Part shown: positions 6,427 to 64,000 of the stretch, piece after piece | Numbering within the stretch: the stretch's first letter is position 1 | Layout of the letters: each line of letters opens with the position of its first letter | Assembly (NCBI RefSeq): GCF_008704715.1 | Contig: NZ_CP023689.1 | Coordinates: forward strand, 1,550,001-1,614,000 | Source of the DNA: Streptomyces chartreusis | GTDB lineage: Bacteria > Actinomycetota > Actinomycetes > Streptomycetales > Streptomycetaceae | DNA: 64,000 bases | Direction of reading: 5' to 3' | Position numbers and translations under genes: made by a program | The notes under the pieces: model-generated | Databases searched by the model: none | What the model saw: the letters and a program-made list of their open reading frames with translations, nothing else | What the model was told of the DNA's origin: nothing

Positions 6427-7206
6427 TCACTTCAGCCTGCTGGAGGCGAGGATGGACACGAGGTGCAGCAGGGTCTGGAGCAGCGCGATGCCGGCGAGCA
6501 CGGCGACGCCGAGCCGGGAGAAGAACAGGTCGCCGCGGACCTGGTCGGCGATCGCCAGGACCAGGATGAGCAGCGACGCCTCGATGCCGAGGATCAGGCG
6601 GTGGAACTTCAGCAGGGCGGCGGCCTTGCGAGCCATGGCCATGCCGGAGGAGCGCATCTCGGACGCCGCCTCCTGGACCGGCGGCTTGCCGGCCTGGTGG
6701 CGGGCGACGCCGACGAGGTCGGTCTCGGCCTTGATCAGGATGGCGCCCAGCGCGGCCAGCGTGCCGAGGAAGGCCCACAGCCAGTCGATACGGCCGCTGC
6801 CCCACAGGTCGGCGGCGCGCAGGCCGAAGCCGACGAGCACGGCGGCGTCGGTGAGGTACGCGCCGACGCGGTCGAGGTAGACGCCGTTGAGGGAGTACTG
6901 CTTCTTCCAGCGCGCGATCTCGCCGTCGACGCAGTCGAGCAGCAGATACATCTGGACGCACACCACGCCCAGCACGGCCCCCGGGACCCCTGGCACCAGG
7001 AGCGCCGGGGCCGCGAGGACACCGAAGACGGTCATCAGGTACGTGAGCTGGTTGGGCGTGACCCTGGTGTTCACCAGGTAGCGGTCGACCCGCAGGGACA
7101 CCTCGCGCATGTAGAGGCGTCCCATCCAGTGCTCACCGCTGCGCCGGTCCTTCACCCCCGCGGGGTGAACGACGGGGCGGAGTTCAGCTACCGATGGCCT
7201 TGACAT
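6427..7206 (-). CDS. CDP-alcohol phosphatidyltransferase family protein, lacks final Asp
   Basis: Membrane enzyme of 259 aa with about six hydrophobic segments. The CDP-alcohol motif is present from D91 (DCVDGEIAR, then G108 and D112), but the fourth aspartate, usually taken as the catalytic base, is A116. The nearest Asp is D120. The DNA reads clearly here, so this is not a translation slip. It may use another residue, be regulatory, or act on an unusual alcohol. It overlaps the upstream dehydrogenase gene by 23 bp. The paralogue at 8982-10823 keeps all four aspartates, so the two may act together. Substrates are unknown. Confidence 0.8.
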   Translation of the reverse strand: MSRPSVAELRPVVHPAGVKDRRSGEHWMGRLYMREVSLRVDRYLVNTRVTPNQLTYLMTVFGVLAAPALLVPGVPGAVLGVVCVQMYLLLDCVDGEIARWKKQYSLNGVYLDRVGAYLTDAAVLVGFGLRAADLWGSGRIDWLWAFLGTLAALGAILIKAETDLVGVARHQAGKPPVQEAASEMRSSGMAMARKAAALLKFHRLILGIEASLLILVLAIADQVRGDLFFSRLGVAVLAGIALLQTLLHLVSILASSRLK

Positions 7207-8245
7207 AGTCGGCGTAGATGTCCTTGATCTGGTCGGTTGTCAGGTCGAGGTGTTCGAGGATCGTGTAGCGGCCGGGCCGGGTCTGCGGAGCGAACTCCAC
7301 CGCGCGGACGAACTCGTCGTCCGAGAAGCCGATCTCCTCCGGCAGTACCGGCAGGCCGTGCCGGCGCAGCACCTCGGCCATGTGGGCCGACTCCTCGTGG
7401 GCTCCGCGCAGGTACATCGCGAACGCCGCGCCGAGCCCGCACTGCTCGCCGTGGGCGGCGGCGCGCCGGGGGTACAGCAGGTCGAAGGCGTGGTTGATCT
7501 CGTGGCACGCGCCGGAGGACGGACGGGAGTCGCCCGACACCGACATGGCGATGCCGCTGAGCACCAGCGCCTCGGCCAGGACCTGGAGGAAGTCGGTGTC
7601 CCCGATGCCGCCGGGGTGGCGCAGCACGGCCTCGCCGGCCTGCCGGGCGATCGCGGCGGCGAGGCCGTCGATCTTCTCGCCCTTGACCCGGTTGGCCAGC
7701 TCCCAGTCCGCGATGGCGGAGATGTTGGAGACGGCGTCACCGATGCCGGCCCGGACGAAGCGCACGGGGGCGTCGCGGATGACGTCGAGGTCGATGACGA
7801 CGGCGATCGGGTTCGGCACTCCGTAGGAGCCGCGCCCGGCGTCGTTGTCGAGGGTGGCGACCGGCGAGCACAGGCCGTCGTGCGCGAGGTTCGTCGGTAC
7901 GGCGACCAGCGGCAGGCCGACGCGCGCCGCGGCGAACTTGGCGCAGTCGATGATCTTGCCGCCGCCGAGCCCGACGACGGCGTCGTAGTGGCCGGCCCTT
8001 ATGTCGCCGGCCAGCCGGACCGCGTCGTCGAGGGTGCCGCCGCCGACCTCGTACCAGGTGGCCCCGGGCAGTGCGGGAGCGAGCCGCTCCTTGAGCCGGG
8101 CACCGGAGCCGTTGCTGACCGCGACGGCCAGCTTGCCGGAGTGCGAGATCCGTTCGTCGGCGAGCACACCCGCCAGGTCGTCGAGAGCGCCCGGGCGGAT
8201 GTCGACGACGACCGGCGAGGGGATCAGCCGGGTCAGTACTGGCAT
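7184..8245 (-). CDS. Glycerol-1-phosphate dehydrogenase-like, metal-dependent alcohol dehydrogenase fold
   Basis: 353-aa NAD(P)-dependent enzyme of the iron-containing alcohol dehydrogenase/dehydroquinate synthase superfamily. Closest in pattern are sn-glycerol-1-phosphate dehydrogenases (EgsA/AraM): GLGGGKIIDCAK (92-103), VPTNLAHDGLCSP (116-128) and GIGDAVSN (167-174). Probable metal ligands are D170, a histidine in CHEINH (H248 or H252) and H265 in HGEQCG. It would reduce dihydroxyacetone phosphate or a related ketose phosphate to a polyol phosphate for the adjacent cytidylyltransferase. The start overlaps that gene by 13 bp. The exact substrate is inferred, not shown. Confidence 0.8.
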   Translation of the reverse strand: MPVLTRLIPSPVVVDIRPGALDDLAGVLADERISHSGKLAVAVSNGSGARLKERLAPALPGATWYEVGGGTLDDAVRLAGDIRAGHYDAVVGLGGGKIIDCAKFAAARVGLPLVAVPTNLAHDGLCSPVATLDNDAGRGSYGVPNPIAVVIDLDVIRDAPVRFVRAGIGDAVSNISAIADWELANRVKGEKIDGLAAAIARQAGEAVLRHPGGIGDTDFLQVLAEALVLSGIAMSVSGDSRPSSGACHEINHAFDLLYPRRAAAHGEQCGLGAAFAMYLRGAHEESAHMAEVLRRHGLPVLPEEIGFSDDEFVRAVEFAPQTRPGRYTILEHLDLTTDQIKDIYADYVKAIGS

Positions 8246-58930: not shown

Positions 58931-59905
58931 GTGACGATCACTTCCCCTCACCTCGGCAGCTCTGCCGGCTGGACCGACGCCCGTCTGCTGTACGCGCTGG
59001 AGGAAGTGGTCGAGAAGGAACTCAACCGGCACCTGAAGGTCGCCAAGGACTGGATGCCGCACGAGTACGTCCCGTGGTCGGACGCCCGCAACTTCCCCGG
59101 CTTCTTCGAGGACGGCGAGGCCTGGGACAAGGAGCAGTCCAAGGTCACCGAGATCGGCCGGATCGCCCTGGTGGTGAACCTCCTCACCGAGGACAACCTG
59201 CCGAGCTACCACCACGAGATCGCCTCGCTCTTCGGCCGTGACGGCGCCTGGGGCACCTGGGTGCACCGCTGGACGGCCGAGGAGGGCCGGCACGGCATCG
59301 TGATGCGCGACTACCTGCTCGCCTCGCGCGCGGTGGACCCGGACAAGCTGGAGCAGTTCCGCATGGCCCACATGAGCGAGGGCTTCGAGTCGGACAACAG
59401 CCACTCGATGCTGCACTCGGTCGCCTACGTCTCCTTCCAGGAGCTCGCGACCCGCATCTCGCACCGCAATACCGGCCACCAGTCCGGTGACCCGGTCTGC
59501 GACCGCATGCTGGCGCGCATCGCGACCGACGAGAACCTCCACATGATCTTCTACCGGAACCTGCTGAAGGCCGCGTTCGAGATCGCCCCCGACCTCACCA
59601 TGCAGGCCGTGCGCGACGTCGTGGTCAACTTCCGCATGCCCGGCCACGGCATGCCCGGCTTCGAGCGCGCGGCCGCCCAGATGGCCATCGGCGAGGTCTA
59701 CAACATGCGCATCCACCACGACGACGTCCTCGAGCCGGTCCTGCGCTTCCTGAAGATCATGGAGATCGACGGTCTCGGCCCCGAGGGCCAGAAGGCCCAG
59801 GAGGAACTGGGTCTGTTCATGGGCGGACTGAACGCCGAGGCCACGAAGTTCGACGAGAAGCTCGCGGCGCGCAAGGCCCGCATGGCCGCGCGGGCGGCCG
59901 GCTGA
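58931..59905 (+). CDS. Acyl-[acyl-carrier-protein] desaturase (ferritin-like di-iron)
   Basis: 324-aa soluble di-iron desaturase that introduces a cis double bond into acyl-ACP. Iron ligands are in WTAEEGRHGIVMRDYL (ExxH) and in ATDENLHMIFYRN (second ExxH). The helical bundle region LHSVAYVSFQELATRISHRN also matches. The start is GTG at 58931 with GGAG 6 nt upstream. It is a single gene between a triple operator and a U-tract terminator, so it is probably controlled on its own by a fatty-acid or temperature regulator. Confidence 0.92.
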   Translation: MTITSPHLGSSAGWTDARLLYALEEVVEKELNRHLKVAKDWMPHEYVPWSDARNFPGFFEDGEAWDKEQSKVTEIGRIALVVNLLTEDNLPSYHHEIASLFGRDGAWGTWVHRWTAEEGRHGIVMRDYLLASRAVDPDKLEQFRMAHMSEGFESDNSHSMLHSVAYVSFQELATRISHRNTGHQSGDPVCDRMLARIATDENLHMIFYRNLLKAAFEIAPDLTMQAVRDVVVNFRMPGHGMPGFERAAAQMAIGEVYNMRIHHDDVLEPVLRFLKIMEIDGLGPEGQKAQEELGLFMGGLNAEATKFDEKLAARKARMAARAAG

Positions 59906-59998: not shown

Positions 59999-60847
59999 AT
60001 GCTCGCCATGCGTGAGAACAGCAGGGTGGAGCAGGCCGTCGGCTTCCTGCTCCACCTGGTCGATGCGGAGACCGCCGAGCGGGTCCGGGCGCGCACCGGG
60101 CTGCCCGGGCCGGAGGACCCGAGGACGTCCCGGCTGCGGCTCACGCGCGCGTGGACGTGGGCGCGGCGCCTGCCGTCCTCCGTGGCGCTGTGGGTCCTGG
60201 AGAACGACGATCCGGCGCTCAACGCCGTGATGTGGACCTGCATCGCCAATGACGCGGGACTGCGCCGGGCGGTCGCCCGCGGCGTGCCCTTCGGAGCCGG
60301 CCGCACCGGTCCCCTCCAGGTCGACCTGGCACTGCGGGAGCAGGAGCCCGAGGTGCCCGACAGCTACGTCCGCCACGGCCTCGTGGGCGCGCTGCGCGCC
60401 GTCACGTCGATGGGCCAGGCGCGCGCCGCCGCGTCCATGGTGCTGACGGCCGACGACTGGTGGACGGTCGGGGAGGCCGATCTCGACCGTCCGCTGCCCG
60501 GCTACGCCCGCTGGGCGCTGTCGGTGCGCCCGGACTGCCCGCCCCTGGTGCGCGCGGGGTTCGGCTCGCACGCCAAGTTCACGCATCGCCTGCGGGAGGC
60601 GGGCATCGTCGAGGGCCCGGCCGAGTACGCGACGGCCCATGGGCCCGCCGTCGACGTCCTGGAGGTCCTGGCGATGGGACATCTGCTGTTCCCCGCGCGC
60701 GTCCACGAGGCGCAGGACGCCCTGCGGCCGCTCGTGCGGGACCACTTGGGCGAGCGCGAGGAGGCCTGGGCGGTGCTGGCGCAGCTCATGGAGACGTTCC
60801 ACGGCAGGACGCCGGAGCTGGTGATGACGGCCGGCTCGATCGCCTGA
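59999..60847 (+). CDS. Hypothetical protein
   Basis: 282-aa predicted cytoplasmic protein with Ala-, Leu- and Arg-rich helices and no signal peptide or membrane span. Recurrent patterns such as VVENDD-like ALWVLENDDPALNAVMW and GLVGALRAVTSMGQARAA suggest alpha-helical repeats. I do not recognise a family. ATG 59999 is used; an in-frame ATG at 60008 is equally possible. It lies between the desaturase terminator and the tRNA-like gene. Confidence 0.65.
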   Translation: MLAMRENSRVEQAVGFLLHLVDAETAERVRARTGLPGPEDPRTSRLRLTRAWTWARRLPSSVALWVLENDDPALNAVMWTCIANDAGLRRAVARGVPFGAGRTGPLQVDLALREQEPEVPDSYVRHGLVGALRAVTSMGQARAAASMVLTADDWWTVGEADLDRPLPGYARWALSVRPDCPPLVRAGFGSHAKFTHRLREAGIVEGPAEYATAHGPAVDVLEVLAMGHLLFPARVHEAQDALRPLVRDHLGEREEAWAVLAQLMETFHGRTPELVMTAGSIA

Positions 60848-60875
60848 CGGCACCCGGCCGCTCGCCGTGAGGGGG

Positions 60876-60949
60876 GCGGGGCGGCTGGATTCGAACCAGC
60901 GTGCTCTGGTTTTGGAGACCGGCGCGCCTGCCTCTGCGCTACGACCCCG
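60876..60949 (-). tRNA. tRNA-Trp-like gene (anticodon CCA) with a bulged acceptor stem
   Basis: Minus-strand cloverleaf. The D arm is GCGC/GCGC, the anticodon loop CTCCAAA gives anticodon CCA, the variable loop has 5 nt, and the T arm is GCTGG-TTCGAAT-CCAGC. The acceptor stem pairs only if one U (base 60944 region, coding strand GGGGTCG) is bulged, and the anticodon stem has one C-A mismatch. The 3' CCA is not encoded. It may be a second, divergent tRNA-Trp or a decaying copy. Confidence 0.65.
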
Positions 60950-61039
60950 CCCTTGATCCCCGAGCGTAATGCGTTGGCCCGTTGTCAGTGGGCGCTGCTA
61001 CCAATGAGGTCCGGGGGAAATTCGGTACGGGGGCTCGTC

Positions 61040-62443
61040 ATGGCGTACGGAGAGCGGGGGCGGCGTGTCCCTGTGGTCGACCTGAACGACCGCAGGGCGC
61101 TGGAGCGTCACCGGCCGGCGGACCCGGCGACGGTGGAGGAGGCACGGGGCCTCAAGGAGGCCGCGCTGCTGGACTTCGGCCTGACGGAGTCGGCGGTGGC
61201 GTCCTGGCTGTACGCGAAGTGCCATCACCAGATCCCGACGACCGCGGTGGACACGGCGGCCGTGGTGGCCTCGGGCGACGGCACCTGCCTGCTGCTCTAC
61301 AACCCCGGCTTCTTCGTACGACTGGGCCTGGACGGCGTGAAGTTCGTGCTGTTCCACGAGGCCCGGCACCTCGTGCACCGGCATCTGTTCACCAACCCGG
61401 AGCTGCGCGAGGATCCGGTGTTCGAGCTGGCCTGCGAGGTCTCCATCAACCACGTGGCCCTGATCCGGCTCGGCAGAGAGCAGTTGCCGCTGCTGGAGGG
61501 CCGTCCGACGGGAGTCGACCCCCGCGAGGTGTACGCCGCCTACCGCGCGGACCTGACGGCGCACGGCCTGGAGCCGGTGCCGTACGAGACGTTCATCGAG
61601 ACGGACATGCGGGTGTACGGCGAGTTGAAGCGCATGCACCGCCCGCCGGTGCCGGCGCGACGCCTGTGTGTGCACCTCCAGGACGGGGCGGTCCCCGCCG
61701 ACCAGGAGACCGTGGACGGGGTGGCCTCGTCGGCCCTGCTCAACGCGCTGCTCGCGGCCCGGCGCGGACACGCGGGCGCGGAGCGGGAGTTGCTGGAGCT
61801 GATGGGCCGCAGCGAGGAGGGCAACGCCCGGGCCGCGAAGCTCTGGGGGAACCTGGGCGCGGGCGCCCTGCGCGGCGAGACCGCACGCACCCGCACGGTC
61901 GACTGGTGGCAGCGCTGGCTGGTCGACGTGCTCGGCTCGAAGCTGCGCGACGGCGAGCGGCTGGTGTACCCGAAGAAACGCGGCGCGCTGCTCGCGGCGC
62001 TCGGCCAGGACCCGATGCTCGCGCGACGCGGCCCGGTGCGGGACAAGGTGCTCGTCATCGCCTACGACACCTCGGGCTCGATGCCGGCCCACGTGATCGA
62101 CTGGCTCACCGAACTGGTGGGCCGTATCGACGGCGTGGAGGCGCACTGGCTGTCCTTCGACGCCGTGGTGATGCCCTTCGCACCGGGCGAGCGGGTGTAC
62201 GGCGGCGGCGGCACGAGCTTCCACGTGGTCGCCGACTACGTGGAGGGCCGCACGGAGGTGAACGGGCGGCGGCTGGACGTCGTACCGGACGCGGTCGTCG
62301 TCCTCACCGACGGACTCGCGCCGCCGATCACGCCCGCCGAGCCGGAGAAGTGGATCTGGCTGATCACCGAGGGCGGCAGCGAGTGGCCCGAGACGCACAA
62401 GCCTGCGATGGACTGCCATCGCGTCACGACAGGATCGCGGTAG
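61040..62443 (+). CDS. VWA-like protein with putative metallopeptidase N-domain (DUF2201-like)
   Basis: 467-aa soluble protein. The N-terminal part has FHEARHLVHRH (H106, E107, H110), an HExxH-type zinc motif, followed by ACEVSINH. The C-terminal part is a VWA-like domain with the MIDAS motif D343-T-S345-G-S347 and a late VVVLTDG. This two-domain layout partners MoxR-type AAA ATPases, and indeed the next gene starts one base after the stop. ATG 61040 is used; in-frame upstream starts exist. Probable role: an ATPase-driven chaperone or protein-processing complex with unknown clients. Confidence 0.8.
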   Translation: MAYGERGRRVPVVDLNDRRALERHRPADPATVEEARGLKEAALLDFGLTESAVASWLYAKCHHQIPTTAVDTAAVVASGDGTCLLLYNPGFFVRLGLDGVKFVLFHEARHLVHRHLFTNPELREDPVFELACEVSINHVALIRLGREQLPLLEGRPTGVDPREVYAAYRADLTAHGLEPVPYETFIETDMRVYGELKRMHRPPVPARRLCVHLQDGAVPADQETVDGVASSALLNALLAARRGHAGAERELLELMGRSEEGNARAAKLWGNLGAGALRGETARTRTVDWWQRWLVDVLGSKLRDGERLVYPKKRGALLAALGQDPMLARRGPVRDKVLVIAYDTSGSMPAHVIDWLTELVGRIDGVEAHWLSFDAVVMPFAPGERVYGGGGTSFHVVADYVEGRTEVNGRRLDVVPDAVVVLTDGLAPPITPAEPEKWIWLITEGGSEWPETHKPAMDCHRVTTGSR

Positions 62444-64000
62444 ATGACCACGCAAGCACGGCAGACGGACGTGTCCGGGCCGGACTCCCCCCAGGGCGGG
62501 GGACGTTCGGCCACCCCGTCCCGCCTGGAGTCCTTCATCGACGCGATGATCGACATGGGGCAGACCGGGCAGATCTTCGGCGAGCACGGCATCGGCAAGA
62601 CGGCGACGTTCTTCACGCACATCGAGCGCGCCCACGAGAACACCGAGCTGGTGTACGTCCCGGCGGCGAACCTGACGCCGGACGACCTGCTCGTCAACGC
62701 GCCGGTGCGCGACGCGCACACCGGTGAACTCGTGCTGCGGCAGCTGGTGATGAGCCAGCTCAAGCCGGGCAGGCCGTTCGTGCTGCTGATCGACGACTCG
62801 CTCCAGGCGGGCGACACCATCCAGTCGCAGCTGATGCAGATCGCCTGCAACTGGACGCTGGGCGAGCACGATCTGCGGGCGCTGGGCTGCGTGGGCGTCT
62901 TCCTCACCGACAACGAGTCGCTGGCCGAGACGTCGGCCCGGCGCAGCGACCTCGCGCTGCTGGACCGCATGGTCACGATGCGGATCACGGCGAACGACAC
63001 GGCCTGGCGACGGCACCTGGCCGCCAAGTACCGCCCGTGGGACCTGCGCCCGGTGTTCTCGCTCTGGGCGTCGCTCTCCCCGGCCCTGCGCGAACTGCTG
63101 TCCCCGCGCACCCTGGACCACGTCCTGGCCAACGCCAAGGAGGGCTTCCCGCTCCGCTGGGGCCTGCCCCTGGTCGACGGCGAGCGGCTGCGGCTGACCG
63201 AGCCGGGCGCGGACGGCCGGCCCGGCCAGAACCGCACGGCCGAGATCCTGGACCGCATCGCCGAGTCCCTGGGCGTGCCCAACCCGCCGACCGTTCCCGA
63301 CCCCGTCCGACAGGTGGTCCGCGCGGCCCTGCGCAACCGCTGGACGGTGCTGCTGCAGGGCCCTCCGGGCTGCGGCAAGACGGAACTGGTGCGGGAGACG
63401 GTGCGCGAGGGCCTGGGCCGGGACGCGCTGTACTTCTCGCTGCCGGTGACCAACGTCGAGGACCTGTGCGCGCCGATCCCTTCGGCCGACGGCACTCTGG
63501 AGAACCTGCTGGCGGCGAAGTTCACCGGGCCGGAGCCCAAGGCGATCGTGTGGGACGAGTACAACCGCCCCAAGGACAAGGCAGCGTTCGCCAAGCTCAT
63601 GGAGATCACCCAGGAGTGGTCGCTGGCGGGCCGCCGCATAGCGAACCTGCGGGCCCAGATAGCCGTCCAGAACCCGCCCTACCACCTGGGCCGCAAGCTG
63701 CTGGTCGCCCGGAACAACATCGCCCAGGCGACCCGGTTCACGGCATCCCTGGAGGTCCGGCCCGAGGACATCCCGGCGAACGAGTGGCTGCTCGCGCACT
63801 ACGGCCAGGACGCCGAGACGGTGCTCGAGTGGTGGAAGCACGACATCGACGACGACGGCCGCGCCTGGATCACCAAGCGCACCCTGGAGCGGCTCATCAA
63901 GCTGCACCGCCGCGGCCTCCCTCTGGAGATGGCCACGGTCTACCTGGGCGACGGCGAATACGCCCCGGTACCGCTGACGGCTCTCATGGACCGCCTCAAG
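62444..64000 (+). CDS. MoxR-like AAA ATPase with two P-loops (3' end beyond window)
   Basis: At least 519 codons, open at the window end. It begins MTTQARQTDVSGPDSPQGGG immediately after the VWA gene's TAG. Two separate ATP-binding modules are visible: Walker A GEHGIGKT (46-53) with VLLIDDS, and Walker A GPPGCGKT (306-313) with IVWDEYNRP. MoxR proteins normally have one such domain, so this is a tandem form. It should power its VWA/metallopeptidase-like partner. The C-terminus, and any further domain, are not seen. Confidence 0.82.
   Translation, partial: MTTQARQTDVSGPDSPQGGGRSATPSRLESFIDAMIDMGQTGQIFGEHGIGKTATFFTHIERAHENTELVYVPAANLTPDDLLVNAPVRDAHTGELVLRQLVMSQLKPGRPFVLLIDDSLQAGDTIQSQLMQIACNWTLGEHDLRALGCVGVFLTDNESLAETSARRSDLALLDRMVTMRITANDTAWRRHLAAKYRPWDLRPVFSLWASLSPALRELLSPRTLDHVLANAKEGFPLRWGLPLVDGERLRLTEPGADGRPGQNRTAEILDRIAESLGVPNPPTVPDPVRQVVRAALRNRWTVLLQGPPGCGKTELVRETVREGLGRDALYFSLPVTNVEDLCAPIPSADGTLENLLAAKFTGPEPKAIVWDEYNRPKDKAAFAKLMEITQEWSLAGRRIANLRAQIAVQNPPYHLGRKLLVARNNIAQATRFTASLEVRPEDIPANEWLLAHYGQDAETVLEWWKHDIDDDGRAWITKRTLERLIKLHRRGLPLEMATVYLGDGEYAPVPLTALMDRLK

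What the first reader, a model, noticed from the sequence alone, without database searches (positions are those of the whole stretch)
61040..64000. VWA/metallopeptidase-like protein coupled to a tandem double-P-loop AAA ATPase
One protein combines an HExxH-type motif with a VWA MIDAS motif. The next, starting with no gap, has two complete ATPase modules instead of the single MoxR domain. Such MoxR-VWA pairs remodel or mature proteins; the peptidase motif and duplicated motor suggest an uncharacterised processing or defence machine.
Basis: partly seen in the sequence, partly recalled or inferred. Interest (0 to 1): 0.65.

Follow-up and report, generated by a model that had tools for sequence, protein, structure and literature searches.

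The report
Peptidase-chaperone pair in tRNA-like island
A soil bacterium carries a peptidase-like protein made together with a two-engine molecular motor, and in many relatives the pair sits inside a gene island with odd tRNA-like RNAs, which hints at an unstudied protein-and-RNA machine.

Summary
Window 61040-62443 encodes a 467-aa protein with HEARH and a VWA MIDAS motif; at 62444, with no gap, begins a 614-aa ATPase with two intact AAA modules (it ends outside the window). In 79 orthologues HExxH and MIDAS never vary, and both Walker sets are kept in 73 of 73 long ATPases.

The parts are known: DUF2201 metallopeptidase-VWA proteins with a MoxR-type ATPase, described also in jumbo phages. 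The tandem motor is the variant: of 14 ordinary DUF2201 loci 13 have a partner with one Walker A, one shows none. The model superposes on adjacent dynein or midasin modules.

The RNAs track the SDR: 49 of 51 SDR genes have one just upstream, against 7 of 1130 other genes.

Most likely it is an ATP-driven remodelling or processing machine for an island-encoded client (inferred). Defence is possible but unsupported. My literature searches found no description of the combination.

The parts
59999..60847 (+). 282-aa helical-repeat-like protein (cluster 3), recurrent partner upstream of the pair
   Evidence: No Pfam match; joined by HMM with clusters 17, 58, 224, 241 and, through 17, with 31; a member lies near the VWA gene in 59 of 79 loci. 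'Helical repeat' is my reading of the sequence; no structure was predicted.
60873..60950 (-). tRNA-Trp-like RNA gene (anticodon CCA) between the helical gene and the VWA gene
   Evidence: ARAGORN; Rfam tRNA 44.2 bits (L006:1877-1948); island D-arm and T-arm; no other close copy in the genome
61040..62443 (+). DUF2201-type metallopeptidase-VWA protein, 467 aa
61355..61369 (+). HEARH (residues 106-110), zincin-like active-site motif
   Evidence: HExxH in 79 of 79
62066..62080 (+). MIDAS motif DTSGS (residues 343-347)
   Evidence: DxSxS in 79 of 79
62444..64000 (+). Tandem AAA_5 ATPase, 614 aa; the gene continues 288 bases beyond the window
62579..62602 (+). Walker A of module 1 (GEHGIGKT)
   Evidence: 73 of 73
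63359..63382 (+). Walker A of module 2 (GPPGCGKT)
   Evidence: 73 of 73

Best explanation
The two genes encode a translationally coupled MoxR-type remodelling machine of the DUF2201 kind. The ATPase, whose two AAA modules both keep their catalytic motifs, most likely builds a six-module ring from three two-module chains, with neighbouring modules arranged as in dynein or midasin. The VWA protein is its co-chaperone: it docks through its MIDAS/VWA domain and carries an N-terminal zincin-like peptidase domain that ATP-driven pulling or twisting presents to, or opens for, a client. The client is most likely a complex encoded in the same island: helical-repeat protein, LRR protein, Zn-ribbon SDR and their tRNA-like RNAs (in another clade an LRR protein and a putative 2OG-Fe(II) oxygenase). 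Shown: gene anatomy, conserved motifs, abutting or overlapping genes, similarity of the two modules, recurrent neighbours, folded tRNA-like RNAs beside the SDR. Inferred: ring stoichiometry, zinc binding and peptidase activity, docking, and that island products are the client. Its role for the cell is not known.
For: Motifs: HExxH, E133, N137, H138 and the MIDAS residues invariant in 25 of 25 aligned, both ATPase motif sets invariant in 23 of 23 and in all long members. Coupling: of 77 loci with both genes called, 56 have an ATPase start at or overlapping the VWA stop, 34 of them by 4 bases (starts were chosen nearest to the stop, which favours this). Tandem: module 1 against module 2 probability 94.5, E 8e-8 over 193 columns; the model aligns over both modules with dynein (Z 16.4, 425 residues, rmsd 6.8) and midasin (Z 14.8, 436 residues, rmsd 6.7), module 2 with NorQ (Z 13.1, 212 residues, rmsd 5.1). 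VWA fold at residues 333-467, Z about 10. Island: helical protein near the VWA gene in 59 of 79 loci, LRR in 45, SDR or cluster 22 in 58, with different outer genes in different genera. Mechanism by analogy with NorQD (PMC13036017, abstract).
Against: No client, zinc or peptidase activity has been shown. The structural superpositions have high rmsd and the models a mean pLDDT of 75. The tRNA-like RNAs and the SDR often occur without the pair: 17 of 20 VWA-negative regions that were fetched for the RNA pattern hold the SDR. The pair occurs without SDR, LRR or RNA in several loci (L061, L064, L070, L077). Damaged pairs lie beside an intact SDR in G064 and G149, so the SDR does not depend on the pair.
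Confidence: 0.45

Rival explanations
1. An ordinary MoxR-VWA maturation chaperone: it inserts a metal or cofactor into, or reactivates, a neighbouring enzyme (the SDR, or the putative 2OG-Fe(II) oxygenase in the Actinomadura type), as NorQD and CoxDE do for their enzymes. HExxH is structural or a metal relay and not a protease.
For: NorQD precedent (PMC13036017, abstract); an SDR or cluster 22 lies nearby in 58 of 79 loci; VWA and AAA folds match NorD and NorQ.
Against: The SDR has Thr in place of the catalytic Tyr in 51 of 51, so it may be no normal enzyme, and it occurs without the pair. HExxH and E133 never vary. The oxygenase assignment is a motif reading only.
Confidence: 0.2
2. A conflict (defence) system like the MoxR-vWA ternary systems: the tRNA-like RNAs are sentinels or decoys whose cutting in the anticodon loop signals an invader, and the ATPase-VWA pair releases an effector by remodelling and proteolysis.
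For: Patchy distribution (32 of 392); block present or absent as a unit at one site; anticodons change while the RNA body is fixed; MoxR-vWA ternary systems are predicted conflict systems in multicellular bacteria (PMC7159879, passages); broken tRNAs signal in the RtcR system (PMC7790460, abstract).
Against: PADLOC has no specific match for the pair; the flanking genes in Streptomyces read as chromosomal housekeeping genes; the VWA protein ends with its VWA domain and has no fused effector; no infection data.
Confidence: 0.2
3. Hitch-hiking: the pair and its helical partner are a unit of their own that merely shares a permissive site with a tRNA-SDR-LRR unit; the two have no functional link.
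For: Each occurs without the other; 5 of 35 VWA-negative genomes searched have the SDR orthologue at my 60% identity limit.
Against: The order helical-tRNA-VWA-AAA-LRR-SDR-tRNA recurs in several genera with different outer genes. In 392 genomes two or more copies of the RNA pattern occur in 17 of 32 VWA-positive and 11 of 360 others (p 3e-14, kinship not corrected). Catenulispora keeps the set in another order. Neighbourhood type changes only 8 times on a tree of 73 ATPases.
Confidence: 0.15

Closest known systems
DUF2201 metallopeptidase-VWA protein with MoxR ATPase (Pfam PF13203/PF09967 with PF07728), including this genome's two other pairs
   Same: N-terminal metallopeptidase-like and C-terminal VWA domain; AAA_5 partner encoded next to it
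   Different: Ordinary partners show one Walker A (13 of 13 found); here two intact modules, gene order VWA then ATPase, and an island of neighbours
MoxR-vWA pair of group 2.2 jumbo phages with metallopeptidase fused to vWA (PMC7824862, passages)
   Same: Metallopeptidase-VWA fusion with a MoxR partner; whole-length fold alignment to phage proteins of this kind, with high rmsd
   Different: Chromosomal, no phage record matched by tblastn at E 1e-5; tandem ATPase; the virion-assembly role proposed there cannot apply
NorQ/NorD (PMC13036017, abstract)
   Same: MoxR-class AAA+ ring with a VWA co-chaperone
   Different: NorQ has one module per chain; no peptidase motif; client is nitric oxide reductase
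Midasin and dynein motor
   Same: Covalently linked AAA_5-type modules; midasin also ends in a MIDAS domain (recalled); superposition over both modules
   Different: Two modules here, six there (recalled); VWA on a separate chain
MoxR-vWA ternary conflict systems (PMC7159879, passages)
   Same: MoxR-vWA core with a third conserved protein in multicellular actinobacteria
   Different: No VMAP, iSTAND, FtsH or propeller partner recognised by Pfam in the neighbours scanned; no effector fused to the VWA protein; tandem ATPase
Ro60 (Rsr) with Y RNAs in the rsr-yrlBA-rtcBA operon (PMC7790460, abstract and headings; domain details recalled)
   Same: Helical repeats, a VWA domain and neighbouring tRNA-like RNA genes
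   Different: Repeats and VWA on separate proteins; no TROVE match in the proteins scanned; an AAA motor is present; the RNAs track the SDR, not the VWA protein

Membership tests
DUF2201 metallopeptidase-VWA family | PF13203 DUF2201_N above its curated cut-off | tested here: met
   34.6 bits against 23.2, profile positions 7-108 of 271
DUF2201 metallopeptidase-VWA family | PF09967 VWA-like domain above its curated cut-off | tested here: not met
   14 bits against 26.4; but MIDAS motif in 79 of 79 and VWA fold Z about 10 over residues 333-467
DUF2201 metallopeptidase-VWA family | HExxH in the N-terminal domain | tested here: met
   79 of 79; in ordinary DUF2201_N loci a regex found it in 9 of 14
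Active zinc peptidase | Bound zinc and cleavage of a substrate | not testable with these tools
   E133 as third ligand is a guess from invariance
MoxR-type AAA+ (AAA_5) | AAA_5 domain with Walker A, Walker B, sensor and arginine positions | tested here: met
   PF07728 36.5 bits, two stretches; positions invariant in 23 of 23
MoxR-type AAA+ (AAA_5) | A single AAA module per chain | tested here: not met
   Two modules; 13 of 14 control loci have a one-Walker-A partner, one shows none
Midasin/dynein | Six AAA modules in one chain | tested here: not met
   614 aa with two modules
MoxR-vWA ternary conflict system | VMAP, iSTAND, FtsH or propeller third component | tested here: inconclusive
   Ten neighbour proteins gave no such Pfam match; no dedicated VMAP profile was searched
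Known anti-phage system | Specific match in PADLOC-DB | tested here: not met
   VWA protein no match; ATPase seven weak P-loop matches, best 27 bits
Ro60/Y RNA system | TROVE domain | tested here: not met
   No TROVE among Pfam matches of the pair or of ten neighbour proteins
tRNA (Rfam RF00005) | Score above gathering threshold | tested here: met
   44.2, 50.1 and 56.2 bits for the three RNAs of this locus
tRNA (Rfam RF00005) | Stable decoding identity among orthologues | tested here: not met
   Genes at the same place differ in anticodon between related species; charging and decoding untested

The most novel reading that the evidence does not exclude
The island is a previously undescribed RNA-protein system. 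tRNA-like RNAs with fixed D- and T-arms and exchangeable anticodons are made together with an atypical Zn-ribbon SDR and an LRR protein, which bind or use them (for example as sentinels for anticodon damage). A half-midasin motor with a peptidase-VWA co-chaperone and a helical scaffold remodels or cleaves the resulting particle. The two-module motor would also be a living intermediate between single-module MoxR rings and the linked six-module rings of midasin and dynein.
Probability: 0.25. Interest if true: 0.92.

Novelty: new variant of a known kind. Interest (0 to 1): 0.7.

Why it matters
The pair adds a motor with two intact engines to a chaperone class whose partners examined here have one. 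That is a testable step towards the linked rings of midasin and dynein. The island around it supplies a concrete client hypothesis. It also exposes a family of tRNA-like RNAs whose anticodons change while their bodies do not, tied to a degenerate SDR, for which the literature searches named here returned no description.

Tried and rejected
Phage or plasmid origin: tblastn of both proteins against the phage collection gave nothing at E 1e-5; the ATPase against plasmids gave one partial match (22% of the query, 46.6% identity) in a chromosome-sized record named Nonomuraea gerenzanensis; the VWA protein was not searched in plasmids. The IMG/VR scan with A2 confirmed none of 65 pattern matches. 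Distant kinship with phage proteins exists by PHROGs and by fold.

Defence system: PADLOC and NCBIfam gave nothing specific for the pair.

Integrative element at the tRNA-Trp: rejected as main reading. The 5' end of that tRNA faces the pair, further tRNA-like genes sit at the other end of the block, and 11 of the 12 regions fetched from genomes without the VWA gene show no tRNA by ARAGORN; L160, which keeps LRR and SDR, shows one.

tRNA-like RNAs as extra copies of housekeeping tRNAs: rejected. The Trp-like gene has no other close copy in the genome; the Asp/Gly pair shares only short stretches (45 bases or fewer, 80-91%) with places elsewhere, apart from the 61-base, 75% match to the Trp-like gene.

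Things against me or mended: my first alignment used the wrong strand for three of nine rows (redone). My note after says 6 empty sites; a recount gives 7 of 12. The reversed control pattern gave single hits in 33 of 392 genomes (my count of its table) and never two in one genome, so single hits of the pattern can be chance; 28 genomes have two or more. Of 30 VWA-negative genomes with the pattern I examined 21 (20, G019 as L160); 9 were not looked at. Of 138 RNAs 3 were unparsed and 1. The anticodon-stem shuffle favoured the observed set; a fairer one gives 4.71 against 3.58. L085 (Catenulisporales bin) has the RNA after the ATPase but no SDR was called. The 2OG-Fe(II) oxygenase reading of cluster 22 rests on an HxD...H...R motif; Pfam and the PDB sequence search gave no match. 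The PDB sequence search with the VWA profile gave only two matches above E 0.1, taken as chance. The one-Walker-A control is a regex and would miss a second, degenerate module.
Full report
OBSERVATION. The first gene is window 61040-62443 (467 aa) and the second starts on the next base, 62444. The window cuts the second gene; it ends 288 bases further on and encodes 614 aa. The window lies at C1:1550001-1614000 of a 9.9-Mb single-contig genome; the closest named relatives are Streptomyces. Motif coordinates are in the parts table.

FAMILY. Pfam gives DUF2201_N (putative metallopeptidase) for the first protein and AAA_5 for the second; the DUF2201 VWA model scores below its cut-off. AlphaFold models have mean pLDDT 75. 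Residues 333-467 of the first protein align with VWA domains at Z about 10, NorD of NorQD among them (Z 9.7); the whole protein aligns, with high rmsd, with phage proteins annotated metallopeptidase or VWA-like. The second protein aligns over both modules with dynein (Z 16.4, 425 residues, rmsd 6.8) and midasin (Z 14.8, 436 residues, rmsd 6.7), and module 2 with NorQ (Z 13.1, 212 residues, rmsd 5.1). Modules 1 and 2 align with each other over 193 columns (probability 94.5, E 8e-8, 21% identity), so the tandem looks like a duplication or a fusion of related modules.

CONSERVATION. One genome-contig scan found 93 relatives and kept the best 80, in Streptomyces, Kitasatospora, Catenulispora, Actinomadura, Lentzea, Amycolatopsis, Micromonospora and other actinomycetes. 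With the own locus that makes 81 loci; a VWA gene was called in 79 (L101 and L107 are broken or cut). HExxH is present in 79 of 79 and DxSxS in 79 of 79; all four Walker motifs in 73 of 73 ATPases of 550 aa or more. E133, N137 and H138 are invariant in 25 of 25 aligned sequences, the sensor and arginine positions in 23 of 23. In 77 loci with both genes called, 56 have an ATPase start at or overlapping the VWA stop, 34 of them by four bases; starts were chosen nearest to that stop, which favours this. In L074 3.5 kb lie between them.

HOW UNUSUAL IS THE TANDEM? This genome has two further DUF2201_N genes, with HEVSH and HEMLH and one-module partners of 400 and 353 aa. Of 149 genomes drawn from the phylum, 12 have DUF2201_N, the own one included. 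I fetched 12 of the 13 places outside this genome (the other is at a contig end). With the two own loci, 13 of 14 have a neighbouring AAA protein with one Walker A (ORFs of 353-513 aa) and one shows none in the stretch. A regex found HExxH in 9 of the 14. So the peptidase-VWA/MoxR pair is a known kind and the tandem motor is this branch's own.

DISTRIBUTION. In Streptomyces the VWA gene is patchy: 32 of 392 genomes, a few of them fragments. At the window's chromosomal site I looked at 12 genomes without it: 7 have the desaturase-like and the WhiB-like outer genes directly adjacent, 2 have only the SDR between them, 1 has LRR and SDR, 2 are rearranged (the two outer genes were named by eye). 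The block behaves as an optional island. On a tree of 73 ATPases (quick method) the neighbourhood type (SDR, cluster 22, neither) changes 8 times, and Streptomyces aculeolatus sits among the Actinomadura type, consistent with transfer.

NEIGHBOURS. Three protein kinds recur beside the pair in different outer contexts: a helical-repeat-like protein (59 of 79 loci; clusters joined by HMM), an LRR protein (45 of 79), and a Zn-ribbon SDR or, in the Actinomadura type, cluster 22 (58 of 79 for either). Contig ends lower these counts. In the SDR the YxxxK lysine is kept in 51 of 51 and the tyrosine is Thr in 51 of 51, so it is probably not a normal oxidoreductase. A paralogue elsewhere in this genome has the same Thr and no tRNA gene in the 10 kb around it. 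Cluster 22 has an HxD...H...R pattern that I read as a 2OG-Fe(II) oxygenase; searches gave nothing.

THE tRNA-LIKE RNAs. ARAGORN finds tRNA genes at fixed places in SDR-type loci of several genera: one between the helical gene and the VWA gene, and one to five upstream of the SDR, all on the SDR's strand. They share one D-arm and one T-arm sequence, while anticodons differ, sometimes by one base between close relatives. The stems are real. Acceptor strands pair 6.62 of 7 on average against 4.84 (sd 0.15) when 3' strands are shuffled among 71 distinct strand pairs. Anticodon arms give 4.71 of 5 against 3.58 (sd 0.06) for 100 distinct arms, register searched alike in both. Rfam tRNA scores are 30 to 56 bits in the five loci with hits; the two loci of other types in that search have none. 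The window's Trp-like RNA reads as having extra bases between the acceptor stem and the usual U8 and has no other close copy in the genome.

WHAT DO THE RNAs TRACK? A D-arm pattern occurs in 50 of 392 Streptomyces genomes, in 28 of them twice or more; the reversed control pattern occurs once each in 33 genomes (my count) and never twice. At least one copy: 20 of 32 genomes with the VWA gene, 30 of 360 without (p 2e-12); two or more: 17 of 32 and 11 of 360 (p 3e-14). Kinship is not corrected. In 20 fetched VWA-negative regions with the pattern, 17 hold the SDR (one as a remnant) and 3 do not. Among 67 genomes searched for the SDR (orthologue set at about 60% identity or more by me), it is in 21 of 32 with and 5 of 35 without the VWA gene (p 2e-5); all 21 with the RNA pattern have it, and 5 have it without the pattern. 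A D-arm lies within 1 kb upstream on the same strand in 49 of 51 SDR genes (median 95 bases from the called start) and in 7 of 1130 other genes of the same loci. Of the two misses, L049 has an ARAGORN tRNA there and L074 has none. In Catenulispora L080 and L081 the RNA lies between the ATPase stop and the SDR; L085 has the RNA without a called SDR. So the RNAs belong first to the SDR, and the pair is a frequent but optional addition. None of the nine loci of the cluster-22 type shows the pattern.

MECHANISM. By analogy with NorQD (PMC13036017, abstract) I propose that the AAA ring engages the VWA protein and works on its linker or client by ATP-driven motion, here with a peptidase-like domain in reach. 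Three two-module chains per ring is an inference from the fused arrangement. The client being an island product is an inference from gene neighbourhood alone. Phage proteins of the same architecture were proposed to act in virion assembly with peptide processing (PMC7824862, passages).

LITERATURE. Ten searches of the held library listed no paper whose title or abstract start describes this combination or the tRNA-like family. I read passages or abstracts of five papers, none in full. Most subscription papers are absent from that library, so this is weak evidence of absence.

VERDICT. The pair is a new variant of a known kind. The island with its tRNA-like RNAs is the part a specialist would find surprising, and its function is open.

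Noticed in passing
L006:7986-8142 (genome C1:1616986-1617142, outside the window): Asp-like and Gly-like tRNA genes just upstream of the SDR, same D- and T-arm as the window's Trp-like gene; related species have other anticodons here.
   Followed up: partly
L006:5312-6463 and 6532-7800 (outside the window): LRR protein and Zn-ribbon SDR (Thr for the catalytic Tyr in 51 of 51 SDRs) on the opposite strand directly after the pair.
   Followed up: partly
L137 and L138 (genome about 4.80 and 1.91 Mb): Two further DUF2201-type peptidase-VWA genes of this genome, each with a single-module ATPase.
   Followed up: yes
window 59282-59349, - strand: Rfam ASdes match (69.5 bits) antisense to the desaturase-like gene; may only reflect coding conservation (L006:282-349).
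   Followed up: no
L088:13272-16075 and eight like loci: In the Actinomadura type the pair is followed by cluster 22 (possible 2OG-Fe(II) oxygenase, no family match) and another LRR protein.
   Followed up: partly
L166, L101, L107 and genomes G064, G149: Broken or partly lost copies of the pair beside kept LRR or SDR genes.
   Followed up: no
L175 and L177: Single tRNA-like genes with the island D-arm in Streptomyces regions that lack the SDR and the pair; unexplained, could be chance or decay.
   Followed up: no
PHROGs phrog_1314: The phage family nearest to the VWA protein is annotated 'HNH endonuclease' in PHROGs, which does not fit its match to a metallopeptidase-VWA protein.
   Followed up: no
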